Shown piece by piece: positions 53,359 to 62,267 of a stretch of DNA of 64,000 nt (positions are counted from its first letter, which is position 1; every line of letters begins with the position of its first letter). Below the pieces are notes generated by a model. The model worked only from the letters and a program-made list of their open reading frames with translations. It made no database searches and was not told where the DNA came from. Source of the stretch: Pseudonocardia sp. C8 (lineage in GTDB: Bacteria > Actinomycetota > Actinomycetes > Mycobacteriales > Pseudonocardiaceae); contig NZ_JACMTR010000002.1 in assembly GCF_014267175.1 (NCBI RefSeq), positions 3,311,501 through 3,375,500 on the forward strand. The letters run 5' to 3'. The translations under genes and the position numbers were made by a program.

Positions 53359-55200
53359 CTACGCGGCGGGCCCGGGCTTCTCCGGGGCACCGCCACCGGT
53401 CTCGCCGGGCTTGCCGGGGGCGGACCCACCGGGGGCGCGACCGGCCGGCGCCGCGTCGACCCCGGCCTCCTTGCGCTGGGCGGCGGTGATCGGCGCCGGC
53501 GCGTGGGTCAGCGGGTCGAAGCCGCCGCCGGTCTTCGGGAACGCGATGACCTCCCGGATCGAATCGACGCCGGCGAGCAGCGCGGTGATCCGGTCCCACC
53601 CGAACGCGATCCCGCCGTGCGGGGGCGGGCCGTAGGAGAACGCGTCGAGCAGGAAGCCGAACTTCTCCTTGGCCTCGGTCTCGGACAGGCCCATGACCTC
53701 GAAGACCCGCTTCTGGACCTCGGGGTCGTGGATACGGATGGAGCCGCCGCCGATCTCGTTGCCGTTGCAGACGATGTCGTAGGCGTACGCGAGCGCGTTC
53801 CCGGGGTCCTGCTCGAAGGTGTCGATCCACTCCGGGGTCGGCGAGGTGAACGCGTGGTGCAACGCCGTCCAGGCCCCCGAGCCCACCGCGACGTCGTCGG
53901 TGTCGGCGGTCGACTCGAACAGCGGGGCGTCCACGATCCACACGAACGACCACGCGGACTCGTCGATCGCGCCGATCCGCCGCGCGATCTCGCCGCGGGC
54001 GGCGCCCAGCAGGGCGCGGGCCTCGGACGGCGTGCCGGCCGCGAAGAAGATGCAGTCGCCGGGGTTCGCACCGGTGGCCTCGGCCAGCCCGGCCCGCTCG
54101 GCCTCGGACAGGTTCTTCACGACCGGGCCGCGCTCGTCGACCGTCCCGTCCTCACCGATCAGGACGTAGGCGAGCCCGCGGGCGCCGCGCTGCTTGGCCC
54201 ACTCCTGCCAGCCGTCGAGCACCTTGCGCGGCTGCGCGGCACCTCCCGGCATGACGACGGCGCCGACGTAGGGGTTCTGGAACACCCGGAACCCGGTGTT
54301 CGCGAAGTACCCGGTGAGCTCGGTCAGCTCGATGCCGAACCGCAGGTCCGGCTTGTCGGACCCGAAGCGGGACATGGCCTCGGCGTAGCTCATCCGCGGG
54401 ATCGGCGTCGGGATCTCGTGGCCGACCAGCTTCCACAGCGCGACCAGCACCTTCTCGGCCAGCGCGATGACGTCGTCCTGCTCGACGAAGCTCATCTCGA
54501 TGTCGAGCTGGGTGAACTCGGGCTGCCGGTCGGCACGGAAGTCCTCGTCCCGGTAGCAGCGCGCGATCTGGAAGTAGCGCTCCAGGCCGCCGACCATCAG
54601 CAGCTGCTTGAACAGCTGCGGGCTCTGCGGCAGCGCGTACCACGAGCCGGGCCGCAGCCGGGCCGGGACGAGGAAGTCCCGGGCGCCCTCCGGGGTCGAG
54701 CGGGTCAGGGTCGGCGTCTCGACCTCGATGAAGTCCTCGCCGGCCAGCACGTCCCGGGCGGCCTTGTTGACGTCGCTGCGCAGCTTCATCACCGACGCCG
54801 GGCCGGTGCGGCGCAGGTCGAGGTAGCGGTGCGTCAGGCGGATCTCCTCGCCGACGCCGGTGTGCTCGTCGATCGGGAACGGCAGCGGCGCCGACTCGGA
54901 CAGCACCCGCAGCTCGGTGACCGTGACCTCGATGTCACCGGTGGGCAGCTCGGGGTTCTCGTTGCCGGCGGGGCGCCGGACGACCTCGCCGACGACCTGT
55001 ACGCAGAACTCGGCCCGCAGCCGGTGGGCCCGCTCGGCCATCTCGCCCTCGCGGAACACCACCTGGGCGCTCCCGGACCGGTCACGCAGGTCGATGAAGA
55101 TCACGCCGCCGTGATCCCGGCGGCGCGCCACCCATCCGGCGAGGGTCACGGTCTGGCCGGCGTTCTCGGCACGCAGCGTGCCGACGGGGTGGGTTCGCAT
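53359..55200 (-). CDS. aspS: Aspartyl-tRNA synthetase
   Basis: 613 residues, class IIb. OB-fold anticodon domain ([22 protein letters not shown]), motif 2 [20 protein letters not shown], bacterial GAD insertion, motif 3 [13 protein letters not shown]. The last ~40 residues are a Pro/Gly-rich tail. The ATG at 55198-55200 directly follows a GTG; a TAGCCT -10 box (55212-55217, minus strand) ends eight bases before that GTG, so the mRNA may be nearly leaderless. Heads the aspS-DUF389-kinase operon. Confidence 0.96.
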
Positions 55201-55236
55201 CACGGCGGACAAGGCTATCCGCCCGCCCTCGCGGCG

Positions 55237-57303
55237 TTACAGCAGGCTCAGCTGGCCGGCCCGCGGGTCGGGCACGGCAGGTGGCTCCTCCTGACGGGTC
55301 CAACCCAGATCCCGCACCGGCTTCCGCGACGCGGGGTCCCCGGCTGCCGGATCCCGCCGGTCCAGGCCGTGCCGGGCCAGCAGCGGGACGACCCGCCGGT
55401 GCAGCGCGGTCCGGTACTCCCGGTCGGCGTTGGCGCCCCGCCGGTAGAGCCGCTCGTAGCGCGGCAGCAACTTCGGGTACTCCCGGGCGAGCCACTGCAG
55501 GAACCATTCCCGGGTTCCGGGGCGCAGGTGCAGCGCGAGCACCGTCGCACCGGTCGCGCCGGCGGCGGCGATCTCCGCGAGCACCGCGTCGAGCGCCTCC
55601 TCGGAGTCGGTGAGCCAGGGCAGCACGGGCGCGACCATCACCCCGCACGGCAGCCCGGCGTCGGTGATCCGGCGGACCAGGTCCAGGCGGGCCCGCGGGC
55701 TCGGTGTCCCGGGTTCGAGCCGCGCCTGCAGGCCGCGGTCCAGCAGCGCGATCGACACCCCGGTCCCGACCCGGACGTCGGCGTTCGCGGCGGCCAGTTC
55801 CGGGAGGTCCCGGGTGAGGACGGTGCCCTTGGTGAGGATCGAGAACGGCGTGCCCGACCGGGCGAGCGCGGAGATCACGCCCGGCATCAGCCGGTAGCGA
55901 CCCTCGGCGCGCTGGTAGGGATCGGTGTTGGTGCCCATCGCGACGTGCTCGCGGCGCCAGCCCGGCCGGGCCAGCTCCCGTTCCAGGACGCGGGCCACGT
56001 TCACCTTCACCACGATCTGCGAGTCGAAGTCGGCGCCCGCGTCCAGGTCCAGGTAGGTGTGCGTGTTCCGGGCGAAGCAGTTGTGGCTCACGACACCGGC
56101 CGCGACGAAGTCGCCGGTGCCGGTCGTGATGTCGACCATCGGGACGATCTCCCCGGTGTCCTCCACGTCGACGACCCGCGGGGCACCGTCCGGTGGTTCC
56201 TCCACGAGCGCGCCGCCGACGTCGCGCACCCGGGCCACGGCCGGGTCGGCGGCGGCGACCAGCCGCAGCTGCTCGGCAGCCCCGCCCAGCACCCGCAGGG
56301 CGCGGCCGCCCGGCCGGCCCGACGGTTCGGACGCGACCCGGAACCCGAGCCGGCGCAGCGCCTCGACGGTCGCCCGGGTGAGCACCTCGTCGGCGGGGAC
56401 GACCCGCAGCACTCCGGCGCTCACCTCGCCGCACACGTCCAGCACGCCACCGAGGAAGCCGGCGGACCAGCCGGGGCCGGGTCGGTCCGGCCAGGCCGCC
56501 GGTGAAGGCCGCTCCCCCGCGACCGCCGCGACCCCGCCGGCCGCGGGACGCGGCGCGCGGTCCGGACCGTGCGCCACCACCGGCCGCGACGTGAGCAGGT
56601 GGTGGGCCCGGGCCAGCGCCTCCAGCTCCACCCATGCCGACGGGAACGGAGCGGCGGTCACCCGGCCGCGGACCGCATCGGCCCGGGCCAGCCCGCAGAG
56701 GTAGCCCTGCGCGTAGCCGTCCGGCCGGGGCCGGCCCGGCATCGCCGCGGCACCGGGACCGGCCAGCTCCGAGCCGGGGCGCAGGTGCGGCCGGTCCGCC
56801 GACGCCCGGCACCGCCCGGGCCGGACGTGCGCCCACCCGCCCCGGGTGAGGAAACGGTGTTCGGCCGAGGTCACCAGCAGCGTGCCGTCGTCGAGGACCA
56901 CCCGCTGCGCCCGGCGATGGGTGGACCAGCGCGCCAGCACCGGGGTGCGGACGAACCGCCGCCGGCCGCGCGCGTCGGGCACCGTGCCGACGACCTCGTC
57001 GCCGGCCCGGAGCTCGCCGATGGGCCGGGAGCGGCCGTCGGCGGTCAGCACCGGGGTCGCCCCGTCCAGGCAGTAGGTGCAGGCATGGGAGCAGCCGCGG
57101 TACGGGTTGACCGTCCAGCCGAACGGCATCGGCGACGACGACGGCACCCGGTTCAGCACCGACCGCGCCTCCACCTCGTGGAAGACCGTGCCCGCGAACT
57201 CCGGGGTCCGCACGCTGCGCAGCAACCCGCGCATCCCGGGCAGCGCCGCATCGGTGCCGATCCCGTCGAGTCCCACCTGCTGTCCGCTCCACCGCACACC
57301 CAT
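55237..57303 (-). CDS. Intein-containing radical SAM protein, Rv2578c family (SplB-like)
   Basis: 688 residues before splicing: N-extein 77, intein 331, C-extein 280. The exteins together form a radical SAM enzyme of the SplB (DNA-repair photolyase-like) group: RTPEFAGTVFHEVEARSVL, NPYRGCSHACTY joined to CFARNTHTYLDLDAGADFDS, MGTNTDPYQRAEGRYRLMPG, ILTKGTVLTRD. The cluster ligands C71 and C75 lie in the N-extein; the third Cys of CxxxCxxC is the +1 residue of the C-extein, so the FeS site forms only after splicing. The ATG lies two bases after a perfect SOS box, with no ribosome binding site: leaderless and LexA-controlled. Its biochemical reaction is unknown; a DNA-damage role is an inference. 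Confidence 0.93.
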   Translation of the reverse strand: MGVRWSGQQVGLDGIGTDAALPGMRGLLRSVRTPEFAGTVFHEVEARSVLNRVPSSSPMPFGWTVNPYRGCSHACTYCLDGATPVLTADGRSRPIGELRAGDEVVGTVPDARGRRRFVRTPVLARWSTHRRAQRVVLDDGTLLVTSAEHRFLTRGGWAHVRPGRCRASADRPHLRPGSELAGPGAAAMPGRPRPDGYAQGYLCGLARADAVRGRVTAAPFPSAWVELEALARAHHLLTSRPVVAHGPDRAPRPAAGGVAAVAGERPSPAAWPDRPGPGWSAGFLGGVLDVCGEVSAGVLRVVPADEVLTRATVEALRRLGFRVASEPSGRPGGRALRVLGGAAEQLRLVAAADPAVARVRDVGGALVEEPPDGAPRVVDVEDTGEIVPMVDITTGTGDFVAAGVVSHNCFARNTHTYLDLDAGADFDSQIVVKVNVARVLERELARPGWRREHVAMGTNTDPYQRAEGRYRLMPGVISALARSGTPFSILTKGTVLTRDLPELAAANADVRVGTGVSIALLDRGLQARLEPGTPSPRARLDLVRRITDAGLPCGVMVAPVLPWLTDSEEALDAVLAEIAAAGATGATVLALHLRPGTREWFLQWLAREYPKLLPRYERLYRRGANADREYRTALHRRVVPLLARHGLDRRDPAAGDPASRKPVRDLGWTRQEEPPAVPDPRAGQLSLL
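56080..57072 (-). other. Intein (331 residues) with a LAGLIDADG-like, possibly degenerate, endonuclease domain
   Basis: Starts with Cys1 (CLDGATPVLTADGRSRP, block A), block B TSAEHRFLT with Thr and His of TxxH, and ends in VDITTGTGDFVAAGVVSHN (blocks F and G) followed by Cys+1. Block F lacks its usual His (GDF in place of HNF). The middle ~110-290 contains two motifs like LAGLIDADG helices, GYLCGLARADA and GFLGGVLDVCGEV, with weakened acidic residues, so homing activity may be lost. Splicing residues are otherwise complete. Confidence 0.92.
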
Positions 57304-57305
57304 AT

Positions 57306-57321
57306 TCGAACACAAGTTCGA
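57306..57321 (-). promoter_or_regulatory. Perfect LexA SOS box
   Basis: TCGAACTTGTGTTCGA (minus strand) matches TCGAAC-N4-GTTCGA at all 12 fixed bases. It ends two bases before the radical SAM ATG and also lies 85 bases from the divergent YibE/F gene. Confidence 0.9.
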
Positions 57322-57406
57322 GCAGCCGGCAACCGGTCGTCGCCGGACGGTGTCGTCCGGGCGAGCGCCGGTCGGCGATCCGGAGATCGACTGCGAGGAT
57401 GCGGGG

Positions 57407-59392
57407 GTGCACCCGCCCGATCCGCGCCGTCCGGGCCCGCCGGACGCCGAGCCGCCGCGCCGGAACCCGCGCCGGCCGGACGGGCGACGGCCGGACGGAC
57501 GCGGACCGGACGCCCCCCGACCGAACGACGCCGGACCGAACGACCCCCGGCAGGACGACCCCGGGCAGGACCCGCGCAGGCAGGACGGACCCGGGCAGCA
57601 CGAGCCCGGGCGTCGCCGGGCCGGGGGCAGCCGGCACCGGGCGGCGGAACCGGACACCGAGCAGGTCACCCGCGCCCGCCGCGCCGCGCACCCCACCGGC
57701 GGCGACGACACCCCCCGGGCACCGAGACACGCATCCGGCCCGGCCGAGAACCGTCCGGTCACGAGCGGACCGGCCGAGAACCGCCCGGCCGAACACCGCC
57801 CGGCCGAGAACGGCCCACCCGCGGAGTGGTGGGGCCGGTACCCGATGGCACCCGGCGACCGGACGGGCGGGCATCCGGCCTCTCCCGCGTCACCGCCGGA
57901 CCGGCCCGGCGCGCCGCCGGCAGGTGAGGCCGGGAGCGCGGCCGTCGACCGGTCCCCGACGTCCGGCACCACGAGGTCACCCGGACCGGAATCCGACCAC
58001 CCAGCGGAGGACGGTCCGGAGGGCACCGGCTCGTCGCGGGCCCGGTCGGCGGCCCCGGAACCGGCCCGCCGGCGCCGCCGGCCGGCTCGCGGACCGGCAC
58101 GGTCCGGCGGTACGCCCCCCGGAACCCGGCACACACAGCCCGGCGATGCGCCCCCCGCGACCGGGCACGCACAGCCCGGTGGTACGCCCCCCGCAACCGG
58201 GCACACACAGCCCGGCGATGCGCCCCCCGCGACCGGCCACGGGCACGGCCACGGGCACGGCGCCGCCACCCCGGCCGGCCGCCGCGTCCGGAACCTGCTG
58301 GTCGCCCTGCTCGTGCCGTGCGCGCTCGCCACCCTCGCCGGGGTGGCGCTGCTGTGGCCCGGGCAGGCCCCGGTGCCCGAGCTGCCGCCGACCCAGCAGG
58401 TCCGCGCCGAGGTGACGGCCGTGCAGGTCGCCGACTGCACCCCCGGCTCCGGGGACGGCGCCTGCACCGGCGTCACCGTCACCATGACCGACGGTCCACG
58501 GGCCGGCCGGACCCTCGTGCAGCTCGTCCCGGACGAACCGTCCAGCCCGCGCTTCGCCGCCGGCGACCCGGTGACGCTCGCCTGGTCCGGGGGCAACCCC
58601 GACGAGGCCGGGTCCTACCAGCTCAACGACTTCCAGCGCGGACCCCCGCTGATCTGGCTGGCGGCGGCGTTCGCGCTGGCCGTCGTGCTGCTCGGCCGGC
58701 TGCGCGGGCTCGCCGCGCTGGCCGGGCTGCTCCTCAGCTTCGCGGTGCTGCTGTGGTTCGTGCTGCCCTCGATCCTGTCCGGGCGCTCGCCGCTGGCGGT
58801 CGCGGTGACCGGCGCGTGCCTGATCATGTTCGTGGTGCTGTACCTGACGCACGGGTTCAGCGCCCGGACCTCCTGCGCCGTGCTGGGGACGCTGGCCTCG
58901 CTCGCCCTGATCGGCGTGCTCGGCTCCGCGTTCACCGCCGCGGCCCGGCTGACCGGCCTGGACGACACGACCACGAACCTCATCGGCACCCTCGGGCCCG
59001 GCGTCCCGATCGACCCGCGCGGGCTGGTGCTGGCCGGGCTGGTGATCGGCGCCCTGGGCGCGCTGGACGACGTCACGGTCACCCAGGCGTCGGCCGTCTG
59101 GGAGCTCGGTGCCGCCGACCCGGAGCTCGGTGCCGGGAAGCTGTTCGCCGCCGGGATGCGGATCGGGCGGGACCACGTCGCGTCCGCGGTGAACACCCTC
59201 GTGCTGGCCTACGCCGGCGCCGCGCTGCCGTTGCTGCTGCTGTTCAGCGTCGCCGCCGGCGGGGTGACCGAGGTGCTGACCAGCCAGGACGTCGCGACCG
59301 AGATCGTCAGGACGCTGGTGGGCAGCATCGGGCTGGTGGCCGCGGTGCCGGTCACCACGGGCCTCGCGGCACTGGTCGTCGCGCGGCGCTGA
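57407..59392 (+). CDS. YibE/F family membrane protein with a long disordered, His-rich N-terminus
   Basis: 661 residues. Residues 1-~290 are disordered, rich in Pro/Arg/Gly/Asp, with 12-residue repeats (GDAPPATGHAQP type) ending in GHGHGHGHG. Then a membrane helix (VRNLLVALLVPCALATLAGVALLW), an extracytoplasmic segment with two cysteines, and seven more hydrophobic helices with the family motifs LLGRLRGLAALAGLLLSF, VLYLTHGFSARTS and GALDDVTVTQASAVWEL. Function of YibE/F unknown. The GTG at 57407 follows a GAGGAT box by six bases (leaderless). Divergent from the radical SAM gene. Confidence 0.85.
   Translation: MHPPDPRRPGPPDAEPPRRNPRRPDGRRPDGRGPDAPRPNDAGPNDPRQDDPGQDPRRQDGPGQHEPGRRRAGGSRHRAAEPDTEQVTRARRAAHPTGGDDTPRAPRHASGPAENRPVTSGPAENRPAEHRPAENGPPAEWWGRYPMAPGDRTGGHPASPASPPDRPGAPPAGEAGSAAVDRSPTSGTTRSPGPESDHPAEDGPEGTGSSRARSAAPEPARRRRRPARGPARSGGTPPGTRHTQPGDAPPATGHAQPGGTPPATGHTQPGDAPPATGHGHGHGHGAATPAGRRVRNLLVALLVPCALATLAGVALLWPGQAPVPELPPTQQVRAEVTAVQVADCTPGSGDGACTGVTVTMTDGPRAGRTLVQLVPDEPSSPRFAAGDPVTLAWSGGNPDEAGSYQLNDFQRGPPLIWLAAAFALAVVLLGRLRGLAALAGLLLSFAVLLWFVLPSILSGRSPLAVAVTGACLIMFVVLYLTHGFSARTSCAVLGTLASLALIGVLGSAFTAAARLTGLDDTTTNLIGTLGPGVPIDPRGLVLAGLVIGALGALDDVTVTQASAVWELGAADPELGAGKLFAAGMRIGRDHVASAVNTLVLAYAGAALPLLLLFSVAAGGVTEVLTSQDVATEIVRTLVGSIGLVAAVPVTTGLAALVVARR
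58105..58248 (+). repeat. 36-bp tandem repeats coding for the 12-residue repeats of the YibE/F tail
   Basis: Four in-frame units start at 58105, 58141, 58177 and 58213. Units share the CGCCCCCCG core and a CACACAGCC end (the fourth diverges into GGGCACGG). Variation is by a few bases, so the repeat is likely recent. Confidence 0.85.
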
Positions 59393-59396
59393 CCCG

Positions 59397-59942
59397 TCAG
59401 GCGGGGCGCCTCGCCAGCAGGTGCGCCTCCCCGGCGTCCTCGTGGTGCGCCACGATCTCCAGGTCTGCGAACGCCCGGACCAGCTCGCCGGGCGCGGCGC
59501 GGAACCGCCCGCCGGCGTCGCCGACCTCGGACAGCACGGTGATCGCCAGCAGTCCGCCGGGCGCGACCGCCGACGCCAGCACCGGGTACAGCGCGGGAGC
59601 CCGGAACCGCTGGCAGACGACGACGTCGTAGGTCCCGTCCTCGATCGGGAACCCGTCGTCGAGATCGGCCTCGACCCAGCGGATCCGGCCGGGCGGCCGT
59701 TCCGCGGTCGCCAGCTCCGCCGCGGCGGCCAGACCGGCCGGCGAGACGTCGACGGCGACGACGTCCAGGCCCCGGCCGGCCAGCCACACGGCGACGGCGC
59801 CCCGCCCGCACGCCACGTCCAGGGCACGGCCCTGGGCCGGCACCAGGTCGAGGTGCCCGCGCAACGCGTCCGGCGGCTGCGGCGTGCCCGGGCCGAGCCC
59901 GAGGTGCCGGGCGTCCCAGCGCTCGCGGTCCTCCCCGCTCAT
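59397..59942 (-). CDS. Class I SAM-dependent methyltransferase
   Basis: 181 residues. Motif [20 protein letters not shown], then [11 protein letters not shown], acidic [11 protein letters not shown] and DVVVCQRF: a small methyltransferase of type 11/25. Substrate unknown. The ATG overlaps the hisS stop (ATGA), so it is expressed with HisRS. Convergent with the YibE/F gene at four bases. Confidence 0.9.
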
Positions 59943-61267
59943 CGGCCGCCGGGATCGACCTCGGCGGCGACCGCGGTCACCACGGCCTCCACGACCGCGT
60001 CCAGCGGCACGTCCTGCTGCTCGCCGGAGACCAGGTCCTTGAGCCCGATCGTCCCACCCGCCAGGTCCCGCTCGCCGAGCACCAGCGCGAACCGGGCTCC
60101 GGACCGGTCGGCGGACTTCATCGCGCCCTTGAGCCCGCGGCCGCCGTAGGACAGGTCCACCCGGACCCCCCGCGCCCGCAGCCCGGCCGCGATCGTGACC
60201 AGGCGGCGTTTCGCGGCGTCCCCGAGCGGGACGCCGAACACCTCGGAGCGTGCCGCCGACCACGGCTGGACGCCCTCGACACCGCAGGCCAGGAGCGTCC
60301 GGTCGACGCCGATGCCGAACCCGACCCCGGACAGCTCCGGCCCGCCGAGGGTGGCCATGAGGCCGTCGTAGCGTCCGCCGCCGCCGATCCCGGACTGGGC
60401 GCCGAGCCCGTCGTGCACGAACTCGAAGGTCGTCTTCGTGTAGTAGTCCAGGCCGCGCACCATCCGCGGGTTCGGTGTGTACGCGACACCGAGGTCGTCG
60501 AGGTGTTCGAGGACGGCGGCGTGGTGCGCCGCGGCGGCGTCCGACAGGTGGTCCATGAGCAGCGGCGCCTCGGCCATGGCGGCGCGAACCTCGGGCCGCT
60601 TGTCGTCGAGCACCCGCAGCGGGTTGATCTCGGCGCGGGCCTTCGTCGGCTCGTCGAGGTCCAGCCCGGCCAGGAACTCCTGCAGCCGCGCCCGGTAGGC
60701 GGGACGGCACTCGGCGTCCCCGAGCGAGGTGATCTCCAGCCGGTAGCCGGTGAGGCCGAGCGCCTTGAAGCCCTCGTCGGCGATCGCGATCACCTCGGCG
60801 TCGAGCGCGGGGTCGTCGACGCCGATCGCCTCCACGCCGACCTGCTGCAGCTGCCGGTAGCGCCCGGCCTGCGGGCGCTCGTAGCGGAAGAACGGCCCCG
60901 TGTAGCGCAGCTTCACCGGCAGGCCCTGCTTGTCGAGGCTGTGCTCGATCACCGACCGGACGACGCCCGCGGTCCCCTCGGGCCGCAGCGTCACCGACCG
61001 CTCGCCCCGGTCGGCGAACGTGTACATCTCCTTGGAGACGACGTCGGTGGACTCCCCCACCCCGCGGGCGTAGAGCCCGGTCTCCTCGAAGACCGGCAGC
61101 TCGATGTGGCCGTACCCGGCGCGGGCCGCGGCCGCGGCGAGGGTGTCCCGGACGTGCACGAACCCGGCCGAGTCCGGCGGCAGGTACTCCGGGATGCCCT
61201 TCGGCGCGGCGAACGGCTCGGGCTTGCGCGCCCGGGCGCCGTCGGCTCGCTGCTCGGTGGCGGTCAC
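59939..61267 (-). CDS. hisS: Histidyl-tRNA synthetase
   Basis: 442 residues, class II. Motif 2 [16 protein letters not shown] with [20 protein letters not shown], the His-specific [14 protein letters not shown] and GGGGRYDGL, and the C-terminal anticodon domain [21 protein letters not shown]. Divergent from the cyclophilin gene; a TAGGGT box (minus strand, 61351-61356) lies some 85 bases upstream as a candidate -10. Cotranslated with the methyltransferase. Confidence 0.96.
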
Positions 61268-61442
61268 AGTGGGTCCACGTCCTCTCGATGCCGGCAGGTG
61301 CGCGGAACCCGCGCCCGGCCACGGTCGAATGCGCAGGGTCCCGCGCCCCCACCCTAGAACCGTGGTCTCCCGGATTCGCTCCCAGGTCGCCCCGCTACCC
61401 TCCCCGCGGGACGAGTGATCATCGCAGGGGAGTCGGCGGAGC

Positions 61443-62267
61443 GTGGCGACGAATCAGCAGCGCCGGGAGGCGGCGAAGCGGAAGCTGGCGGCCCAGCAGG
61501 CCCGCCGGGCCGAGCGGGCGGCGAAGCGGAAACGAACCACCACGATCGCCGCGGTGGCGACGGTCCTCGTGGTTGCGCTGGTCGCCGCCGTCGTCTACGC
61601 GCTCACCTCGGCGTGGAGCGGGCCGGCCGAGCCGGCGGCCGCGGGCGGCGGGCCGGACACCTCGGCCCTGCCGACGGTGCCGCTGCCGCAGCGCCCGACC
61701 GCGCTGCCCGCGTCGGTGAACTGCGACTACCCCGCGTCGCCCGAGCCGGCGTCCAAGCCGGTCGGCCCGCCCGCCGCCGGTCCGGTGCCCGCCGCGGGCA
61801 CGGTGCCCGCCACCCTGCAGACCAGCGCCGGGCCGATCGACCTCACCCTCGACCGGGGGCTCGCGCCGTGCACGGTGCACAGCTTCGTGCACCTCGCCGA
61901 ACAGGGTTTCTTCGACGGCACCTCCTGCCACCGGCTCACCACCAGCCCCGGCCTGCAGGTCCTGCAGTGCGGTGACCCGACCGGGCAGGGCAACGGCGGC
62001 CCCGGCTACTCGTTCGCGGACGAGGTCTTCCCCGGGCTCACCTACGGCCGCGGGCTGCTCGCCATGGCGAACGCCGGCCCGGACACCAACGGCAGCCAGT
62101 TCTTCATGATCTACGGCGACGCCCAGCTGCCGCCGAACTACACGGTCTTCGGTTCGATCGGCCCGCAGGGCCTCGCGACCCTGGACACCGTCGCGAAGGG
62201 CGGCGAGTCGGCCGGGTCCGGGGACGGCACCCCGAACGTCCCGGTCCGCATCGAACGCACCTCGTGA
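61443..62267 (+). CDS. Membrane-anchored cyclophilin-type peptidyl-prolyl isomerase
   Basis: 274 residues. A basic N-terminus ([20 protein letters not shown]), one membrane helix ([21 protein letters not shown]), a Pro/Ala linker, then the PPIase domain on the outside: [60 protein letters not shown]. The catalytic Arg equivalent is in CHRL. GTG start after AGGGGAG. In mycobacteria the same gene lies between hisS and rel (ppiB). Confidence 0.93.

What the first reader, a model, noticed from the sequence alone, without database searches (positions are those of the whole stretch)
55237..57321. Intein inside the FeS motif of an SOS-controlled radical SAM enzyme
Seen: Cys1 of a 331-residue intein follows CSHACTY, and Cys+1 starts CFARNTH, so the CxxxCxxC cluster motif is broken until splicing. 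The gene begins two bases after a perfect TCGAAC-N4-GTTCGA box. Known: Rv2578c-family/SplB-like enzymes exist in actinobacteria, some with inteins, and Cys-dependent splicing is redox sensitive. Inferred: DNA damage induces an enzyme whose cluster site is gated by splicing, and splicing chemistry uses the thiol that later ligates iron. That would make the intein a post-translational checkpoint in the SOS response.
Basis: partly seen in the sequence, partly recalled or inferred. Interest (0 to 1): 0.85.

Follow-up and report, generated by a model that had tools for sequence, protein, structure and literature searches.

The report
Intein in SOS-controlled radical SAM enzyme
A self-splicing protein insert sits in the iron-sulfur motif of what looks like a DNA-damage-controlled enzyme of a Pseudonocardia-type bacterium; the gene type is already catalogued and the insert looks like an old mobile passenger, but its position might let oxidation block splicing, which can be tested.

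Summary
The intein is real. ORF 57297-55237(-) carries a 331-residue class 1 intein (57072-56080) directly before the third cluster cysteine of an Rv2578c-family radical SAM enzyme. It passes the NCBIfam models for the family (515 bits) and for its intein-containing form (776, cut-off 700), so the gene type is catalogued. Two details need correction. The precursor still reads CSHACTYC, because Cys1 stands in for the third cysteine. The conserved start is GTG 57297, 8 bases after the LexA-type box; ATG 57303 directly follows a putative -10. The box lies inside a promoter that looks leaderless and is present in 50 of 51 intein-bearing and 39 of 41 intein-less homologues, so it goes with the gene, not with the intein. 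The intein is sporadic, with one likely cross-family transfer, repeated endonuclease loss and, here, a lost endonuclease acid. That favours a decayed mobile element with ordinary splicing. The checkpoint idea is not excluded: Cys-3/Cys1 repeats the redox trap reported for Pyrococcus abyssi MoaA (a radical SAM enzyme, recalled) and engineered in 3nzm. New member of a known kind; gating testable but unshown.

The parts
57327..57332 (-). putative -35 element TTGCCG, 17 bases before the putative -10
   Evidence: TTG at spacing 16-18 in 40 of 46 intein-bearing and 33 of 38 intein-less rows with a well placed box; shifted control 1 of 336
57306..57321 (.). LexA-type SOS box (perfect palindrome; TCGAACTTGTGTTCGA on the gene strand), covering promoter spacer and part of the -10
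   Evidence: conserved place in homologues; one-mismatch boxes upstream of the recA and lexA matches of this genome
57304..57309 (-). putative -10 element TCGAAT, 6 bases before the GTG start (leaderless layout)
   Evidence: box followed by AT or CT in 44 of 46 intein-bearing and 35 of 38 intein-less rows; function inferred
55237..57297 (-). Rv2578c-family radical SAM gene with intein, 686 codons plus stop, GTG start
   Evidence: NF038136 775.9 bits, NF038135 515.2 bits, scanned from ATG 57303; start by conservation
57073..57297 (-). N-extein, 75 residues, ends CSHACTY; cluster cysteines C69 and C73
56080..57072 (-). class 1 intein, 331 residues, with a decayed LAGLIDADG region (block C GYLCGLARADA, block E FLGGVLDVCGEV; second acid replaced by Cys)
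   Evidence: TIGR01445 20.6 bits on the intein alone, under its cut-off of 24.5; fold matches to inteins
57070..57072 (-). intein Cys1 (residue 76), splicing nucleophile, three residues after C73
   Evidence: 56 of 56 inteins; aligned by phmmer with the CPGC junction of 3nzm
56077..56079 (-). Cys+1 (residue 407), third cluster ligand after splicing
55240..56079 (-). C-extein, 280 residues, rest of the radical SAM domain
   Evidence: PF04055 39.4 bits

Best explanation
This is an Rv2578c-family (SplB-like) radical SAM enzyme with a LexA-type promoter that carries an old, site-specific intein. LexA on the box would cover the spacer and -10 of a promoter whose transcript appears to start at the GTG; LexA cleavage after DNA damage would free it (sequence plus inference). 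The precursor then splices by the class 1 route: Cys1 (C76) attacks its bond with Y75, the N-extein moves to Cys407, Asn406 cyclises with help of His405, and Y75 is joined to C407, giving CSHACTYCFARNTH, which can bind the [4Fe-4S] cluster (motifs shown, chemistry inferred from class 1 inteins). The intein reached this site as a homing element and has here lost one endonuclease acid; it stays because getting rid of it needs an exact deletion inside an essential motif. Splicing is probably constitutive in a reducing cytoplasm. Oxidation or thiol-binding metals may slow it through C73/Cys1, as a by-product of the site rather than as an evolved SOS switch.
For: Family models. Splicing residues invariant in 56 of 56. 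Splicing part under purifying selection, dN/dS 0.03-0.57 over 20 pairs; endonuclease region higher than splicing part in 15 of 17 pairs. Both endonuclease acids in only 12 of 56 inteins. Extein tree of 107 rows: presence changes 11 times, at least 8 forced by starred branches; mini form at least 8. The own-genus mini-intein L028 lies in a starred clade of inteins from other families although its extein lies in the genus. Box in 50/51 and 39/41 rows. Leaderless-type promoter. An S. venezuelae LexA target, vnz_31145, a radical SAM gene, is induced 19.97-fold by mitomycin C (PMC9380542 section 7; family membership not checked, and its listed box differs in letters and lies at -61). Foldseek: mature relative closest to spore photoproduct lyase, E 1.1e-5; precursor matches inteins.
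Against: No splicing, LexA binding, transcript or enzyme activity was measured. In the genus the intein is frequent (44 of 55 gene-bearing genomes), which a function could also explain. Extein and intein distances correlate (r 0.456, 0 of 999 permutations as high, 52 of 56 inteins used), so much descent may be vertical. The insertion-site DNA is only moderately conserved (24-base window rank 55 of 970, 36-base window 222 of 958). TIGR01445 falls short of its cut-off; Pfam gives nothing for the insert alone and a sub-threshold Hint match (E 0.29) for the whole protein.
Confidence: 0.77

Rival explanations
1. Redox checkpoint: the intein is kept because a C73-Cys1 disulfide holds the oxygen-labile enzyme as an unspliced store during oxidative DNA damage and releases it when the cytoplasm is reducing again.
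For: Cys-3/Cys1 geometry equals the trap reported for P. abyssi MoaA (passage; passages) and aligns with the engineered CPGC junction of 3nzm (entry titled redox trap). Oxidative control of the mycobacterial DnaBi1 intein, a class 3 intein, is published (PMC6195587 passages). It is the only place in this genome that the N-terminal intein model found at E<=1.
Against: Cys-3 is dictated by CxxxCxxC. Box and intein are not seen to go together (weak test). 51 of 107 homologues do without the intein.
Confidence: 0.14
2. Metal or cluster gating: the precursor's C69, C73 and Cys1 bind iron-sulfur or zinc, masking the nucleophile, so that splicing reads metal or cluster supply.
For: The precursor keeps a complete CxxxCxxC string. 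Zinc inhibits mycobacterial DnaB splicing by contact with the catalytic cysteine (PMC7360933 passages).
Against: No structural support: residues 69-72 and 409-412 have pLDDT under 50 in the precursor model, so no distance is given. No data on metal binding.
Confidence: 0.05
3. The intein is defective or the gene is decaying, so that no active enzyme is made.
For: In 3 of 55 gene-bearing genomes of the genus the two halves of the gene lie in different frames of one contig (G002, G041, G051), and 5 of 60 genomes show no gene.
Against: The own copy is one open frame with all splicing residues; extein dN/dS 0.10-0.21 in 19 pairs. The frame breaks may be sequencing errors.
Confidence: 0.04

Closest known systems
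NCBIfam NF038136, intein-containing Rv2578c family radical SAM protein
   Same: Same host family and, by the profile match, the same insertion place; 775.9 bits over cut-off 700.
   Different: Intein here has 331 residues against model positions 76-334; the model's name says nothing of LexA control or redox.
Pyrococcus abyssi MoaA intein with native Cys-3/Cys1 disulfide (Callahan et al. 2011; paper not held; seen through passages of PMC3922620 and PMC10663303)
   Same: N-extein Cys at -3 and Cys1 nucleophile; host a radical SAM enzyme (recalled).
   Different: Archaeal host of another pathway; no SOS control mentioned in the passages seen; its sequence was not compared here.
SplB-type radical SAM genes in SOS regulons (PMC3323433, PMC8565304, passages) and vnz_31145 of S. 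venezuelae (PMC9380542, section 7)
   Same: LexA-linked SplB-like or radical SAM gene.
   Different: No intein mentioned in the passages seen; family membership not checked; the vnz_31145 box differs in letters and place.
P. horikoshii RadA intein, spliced faster with single-stranded DNA or DNA damage (PMC10663303 passages)
   Same: Intein in a DNA-repair protein, linked to damage.
   Different: There the link is post-translational and measured; here only transcriptional control is indicated.

Membership tests
Rv2578c family radical SAM (NF038135/NF038136) | score over curated cut-offs 430 and 700 | tested here: met
   515.2 and 775.9 bits
Rv2578c family radical SAM (NF038135/NF038136) | CxxxCxxC cluster motif in the mature protein | tested here: met
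   C69, C73, C407 invariant in the 64 aligned proteins
Class 1 intein | Cys/Ser1, block B TxxH, block F Asp, His-Asn end, Cys/Ser/Thr+1 | tested here: met
   all present; block B has Ser for Thr, as in 51 of 56
Class 1 intein | self-splicing | not testable with these tools
   needs expression
LAGLIDADG homing endonuclease (active) | two catalytic acids | tested here: not met
   first D kept, second position is Cys; both acids in 12 of 56
LexA regulon of this organism | SOS box overlapping the promoter | tested here: met
   one-mismatch boxes upstream of the recA and lexA matches
LexA regulon of this organism | LexA binding and damage induction | not testable with these tools
   no experiment
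Cys-3/Cys1 redox-trap intein (MoaA type) | N-extein Cys at -3 beside Cys1 | tested here: met
   sequence; alignment to 3nzm
Cys-3/Cys1 redox-trap intein (MoaA type) | reversible disulfide that blocks splicing | not testable with these tools
   needs experiment; local model confidence too low
Spore photoproduct lyase | PF20903 and SPL fold | tested here: inconclusive
   PF20903 11.4 bits under cut-off 27; profile of 44 intein-less relatives hits SPL 4k9r at E 0.0094; fold nearest SPL, TM 0.49

The most novel reading that the evidence does not exclude
A two-layer DNA-damage switch: LexA release makes the precursor, and splicing of an intein whose nucleophile sits beside the cluster cysteines frees active radical SAM repair enzyme only when thiols are reduced or cluster chemistry is possible; kept by selection in many actinobacteria after the endonuclease was lost.
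Probability: 0.14. Interest if true: 0.8.

Novelty: new member of a known kind. Interest (0 to 1): 0.42.

Why it matters
The site recreates, in a LexA-box-bearing gene spread over actinobacteria, the Cys-3/Cys1 junction that the passages I saw describe for one archaeal intein and one engineered intein. Close relatives with no intein, a mini-intein or a full intein keep the same kind of SOS box, so whether inteins become regulators can be tested by swapping natural alleles. It also ties a little-studied SplB-like family to the SOS response through a conserved promoter layout.

Tried and rejected
Considered and not supported: intein presence linked to SOS-box quality. Raw counts differ (perfect box in 32 of 51 rows with intein, 14 of 41 without) but independent pairs on the tree show nothing (7 pairs on starred branches, median p 1; too few differing pairs to reach 0.05). 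Junction co-adaptation: Arg at -2 in 2 of 55 intein-bearing and 21 of 51 intein-less rows; on the tree not supported, again with little power. Split intein in genomes with the gene in two frames: not pursued, since the frame changes could be sequencing errors. Cysteine distances in the precursor model: no model files in the box and low local confidence. M. tuberculosis record for gene order: not in the collections. Papers holding Rv2578c: two listings, neither opened. Of 18 papers holding intein, SOS response and LexA, the 15 listed have none of the terms in the title; only PMC8151990 was looked into, with no occurrence of 2578 or splB. The search for intein with CxxxCxxC listed 12 of 35 papers, none with the term CxxxCxxC. 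TIGR01443 found nothing in the own genome at E<=1, not even this intein, so it cannot count inteins.

Rows dropped: of 110 loci L005-L114, 11 were not parsed by the motif; 10 of these joined the tree (3 with intein, 7 without), L065 did not (no N-terminal part found in frame). L035 and L036 duplicate L031 and L030. Five of 97 rows had no start call (L014, L019, L033, L054, L059); four of them do have a box with at most one mismatch. The own gene (L012) is one of the 51 intein-bearing rows. The parser looked for inteins at this one site only. L047, L052, L054 and L059 were left out of the distance test. The extein value of the pair L057/L059 is an offset artefact and was dropped. Tree method 'quick', 31 of 104 inner branches open. 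'Full' means over 200 residues; one such row (L060) has lost part of the endonuclease.

Full report
WHAT IS THERE. The minus-strand frame ending at 55237 encodes an Rv2578c-family radical SAM protein with an insert. Read from GTG 57297 it has 686 residues: N-extein 1-75, intein 76-406, C-extein 407-686. The junctions are NPYRGCSHACTY / CLDGATPVL ... GVVSHN / CFARNTHTYLD. NCBIfam names it directly: NF038136 'intein-containing Rv2578c family radical SAM protein', 775.9 bits against a cut-off of 700, and NF038135, 515.2 against 430 (scanned from ATG 57303). So the combination of host and intein is catalogued. Pfam adds Radical_SAM (39.4 bits) and only sub-threshold SPL and Hint matches. The genus is Pseudonocardia or its GTDB equivalent: two same-genus loci (L031, L030) are identical over the gene to records titled Pseudonocardia (L035, L036).

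CORRECTIONS TO THE FINDING. The three-cysteine string is not broken in the precursor: C69-SHA-C73-TY-C76, with C76 being intein Cys1. Splicing replaces C76 by C407. Second, the start. Homologues begin at [MV]RW. In 92 rows with a start call, a box with at most two mismatches lies within 60 bases upstream in 50 of 51 intein-bearing rows (own gene included) and 39 of 41 intein-less rows, against 0 of 297 and 3 of 240 control windows. In 84 of the 92 it ends 7-12 bases before the start; of these 84, 79 have AT or CT after the box and 73 have TTG 16-18 bases before the -10 hexamer; shifted controls give 1 of 336. This reads as -35, spacer and -10 with the start codon where transcription should begin: a leaderless promoter with the LexA-type box inside it. 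No transcript was measured. ATG 57303 directly follows the putative -10 and is unlikely to be the start.

SOS CONTEXT. The genome has 8 perfect boxes, reversed control 0, and 68 with up to one mismatch, control 7. One-mismatch boxes stand upstream of the recA match (box 1430095-1430110, match from 1430281) and of the lexA match (boxes from 1463611 and 1463627, match 1462761-1463399 on the minus strand). Beside other perfect boxes are a PHP-domain protein (DnaE2 type by reading), a GIY-YIG protein (UvrC type by reading) back to back with a DUF2786 protein, and a 2OG-Fe(II) oxygenase (AlkB type by reading); at three of the seven other boxes I put no name to the neighbours that bears on repair. 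SOS control of SplB-like genes is in print for alpha- and beta-Proteobacteria (PMC3323433, passages) and Bacteroidetes (PMC8565304, passages). In Streptomyces venezuelae a LexA-bound radical SAM gene, vnz_31145, rises 19.97-fold with mitomycin C (PMC9380542, section 7 read). I did not test whether it belongs to this family, and its listed box differs in letters and lies at -61, unlike the layout here.

THE INTEIN. In the 56 inteins Cys1, block B His, block F Asp and the final His-Asn are invariant; block B has Ser where TxxH has Thr in 51 of 56. Lengths run from 143 to 402 residues; the tree has 51 rows without intein, 43 full (over 200 residues) and 13 mini. The 56 sit at this one site, the only site the parser looked for. 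Both endonuclease acids survive in 12 of 56; here the second is Cys. Over 107 exteins presence changes 11 times and starred branches force at least 8; the mini form needs at least 8 changes (quick method, root not inferred, so gains and losses are not told apart). In the intein tree the mini-intein L028 from the own genus lies in a starred clade of inteins from other families, while its extein lies in the genus: a likely transfer. Intein and extein distances still correlate (r 0.456, 52 of 56 inteins). In close pairs the endonuclease region has the higher dN/dS in 15 of 17 pairs; the extein is lower than the splicing part in 16 of 19 pairs after one artefact was dropped (pairs overlap). In the own genus 60 genomes were drawn: 55 hold the gene, 44 with intein and 11 without; 5 show none, one of them with a 24-bit fragment not counted and one only 72% complete. 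Eight of the 44 and three of the 11 were judged by match span alone; the others were read. In three genomes the halves lie in different frames of one contig. The N-terminal intein model found no other intein in the own genome at E<=1. Among 120 listed of 239 proteins related to the intein, the named ones are mostly Rv2578c-family, radical SAM or 'DNA repair photolyase' entries.

REDOX POSITION. C73 is Cys-3 relative to Cys1. The best PDB sequence match of the precursor, 3nzm (E 0.005), aligns its CPGC junction with C73-TY-C76, and 3nzm is 'DNAE intein with N-extein in redox trap' (title). Reviews state that the P. abyssi MoaA intein has a native Cys-3/Cys1 disulfide that controls activity (PMC3922620, one passage; PMC10663303, passages). 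That MoaA is a radical SAM enzyme is recalled. So the chemistry of the proposed gate has a precedent. But any intein with a Cys1 placed before the third cysteine of CxxxCxxC gets this geometry for free.

STRUCTURE. An intein-less relative (L005) was modelled with 44 sequences, pLDDT 78.6, pTM 0.77; its best PDB matches are spore photoproduct lyases, E 1.1e-5, TM 0.49. The precursor model (64 sequences, pLDDT 83.2, pTM 0.62) matches inteins and spore photoproduct lyase. The cluster loop is under pLDDT 50, so no cysteine distances are claimed.

VERDICT. Ordinary class 1 intein in a catalogued family, with a well conserved SOS-type promoter that does not depend on the intein. The checkpoint reading is possible, precedented in chemistry, and not supported by the distribution. 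Shown: sequences, conservation, distribution. Inferred: LexA control, leaderless start, splicing, redox sensitivity, DNA-repair role.

Noticed in passing
Decay or sequencing error not decided.
   Followed up: partly
53359-62267: Gene order aspS-type, this gene, a membrane protein (YibE/F-like by reading), hisS-type, cyclophilin-like recalls the M. tuberculosis order around Rv2578c; names by reading and recall, no family search.
   Followed up: no
L117 (G000:C2:3306200-3307500): A perfect SOS box stands between a GIY-YIG (UvrC-type) gene and a divergent DUF2786 gene of unknown function, 4.7 kb before the window.
   Followed up: partly
56809-56811 (intein residue 88): A non-catalytic Cys at intein position 87-91 is present in 22 of 23 full inteins of the genus and 2 of 13 mini-inteins (counted); a possible extra thiol.
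   Followed up: partly
L065: Amycolatopsis anabasis locus keeps the C-extein but no in-frame N-terminal part was found.
   Followed up: no
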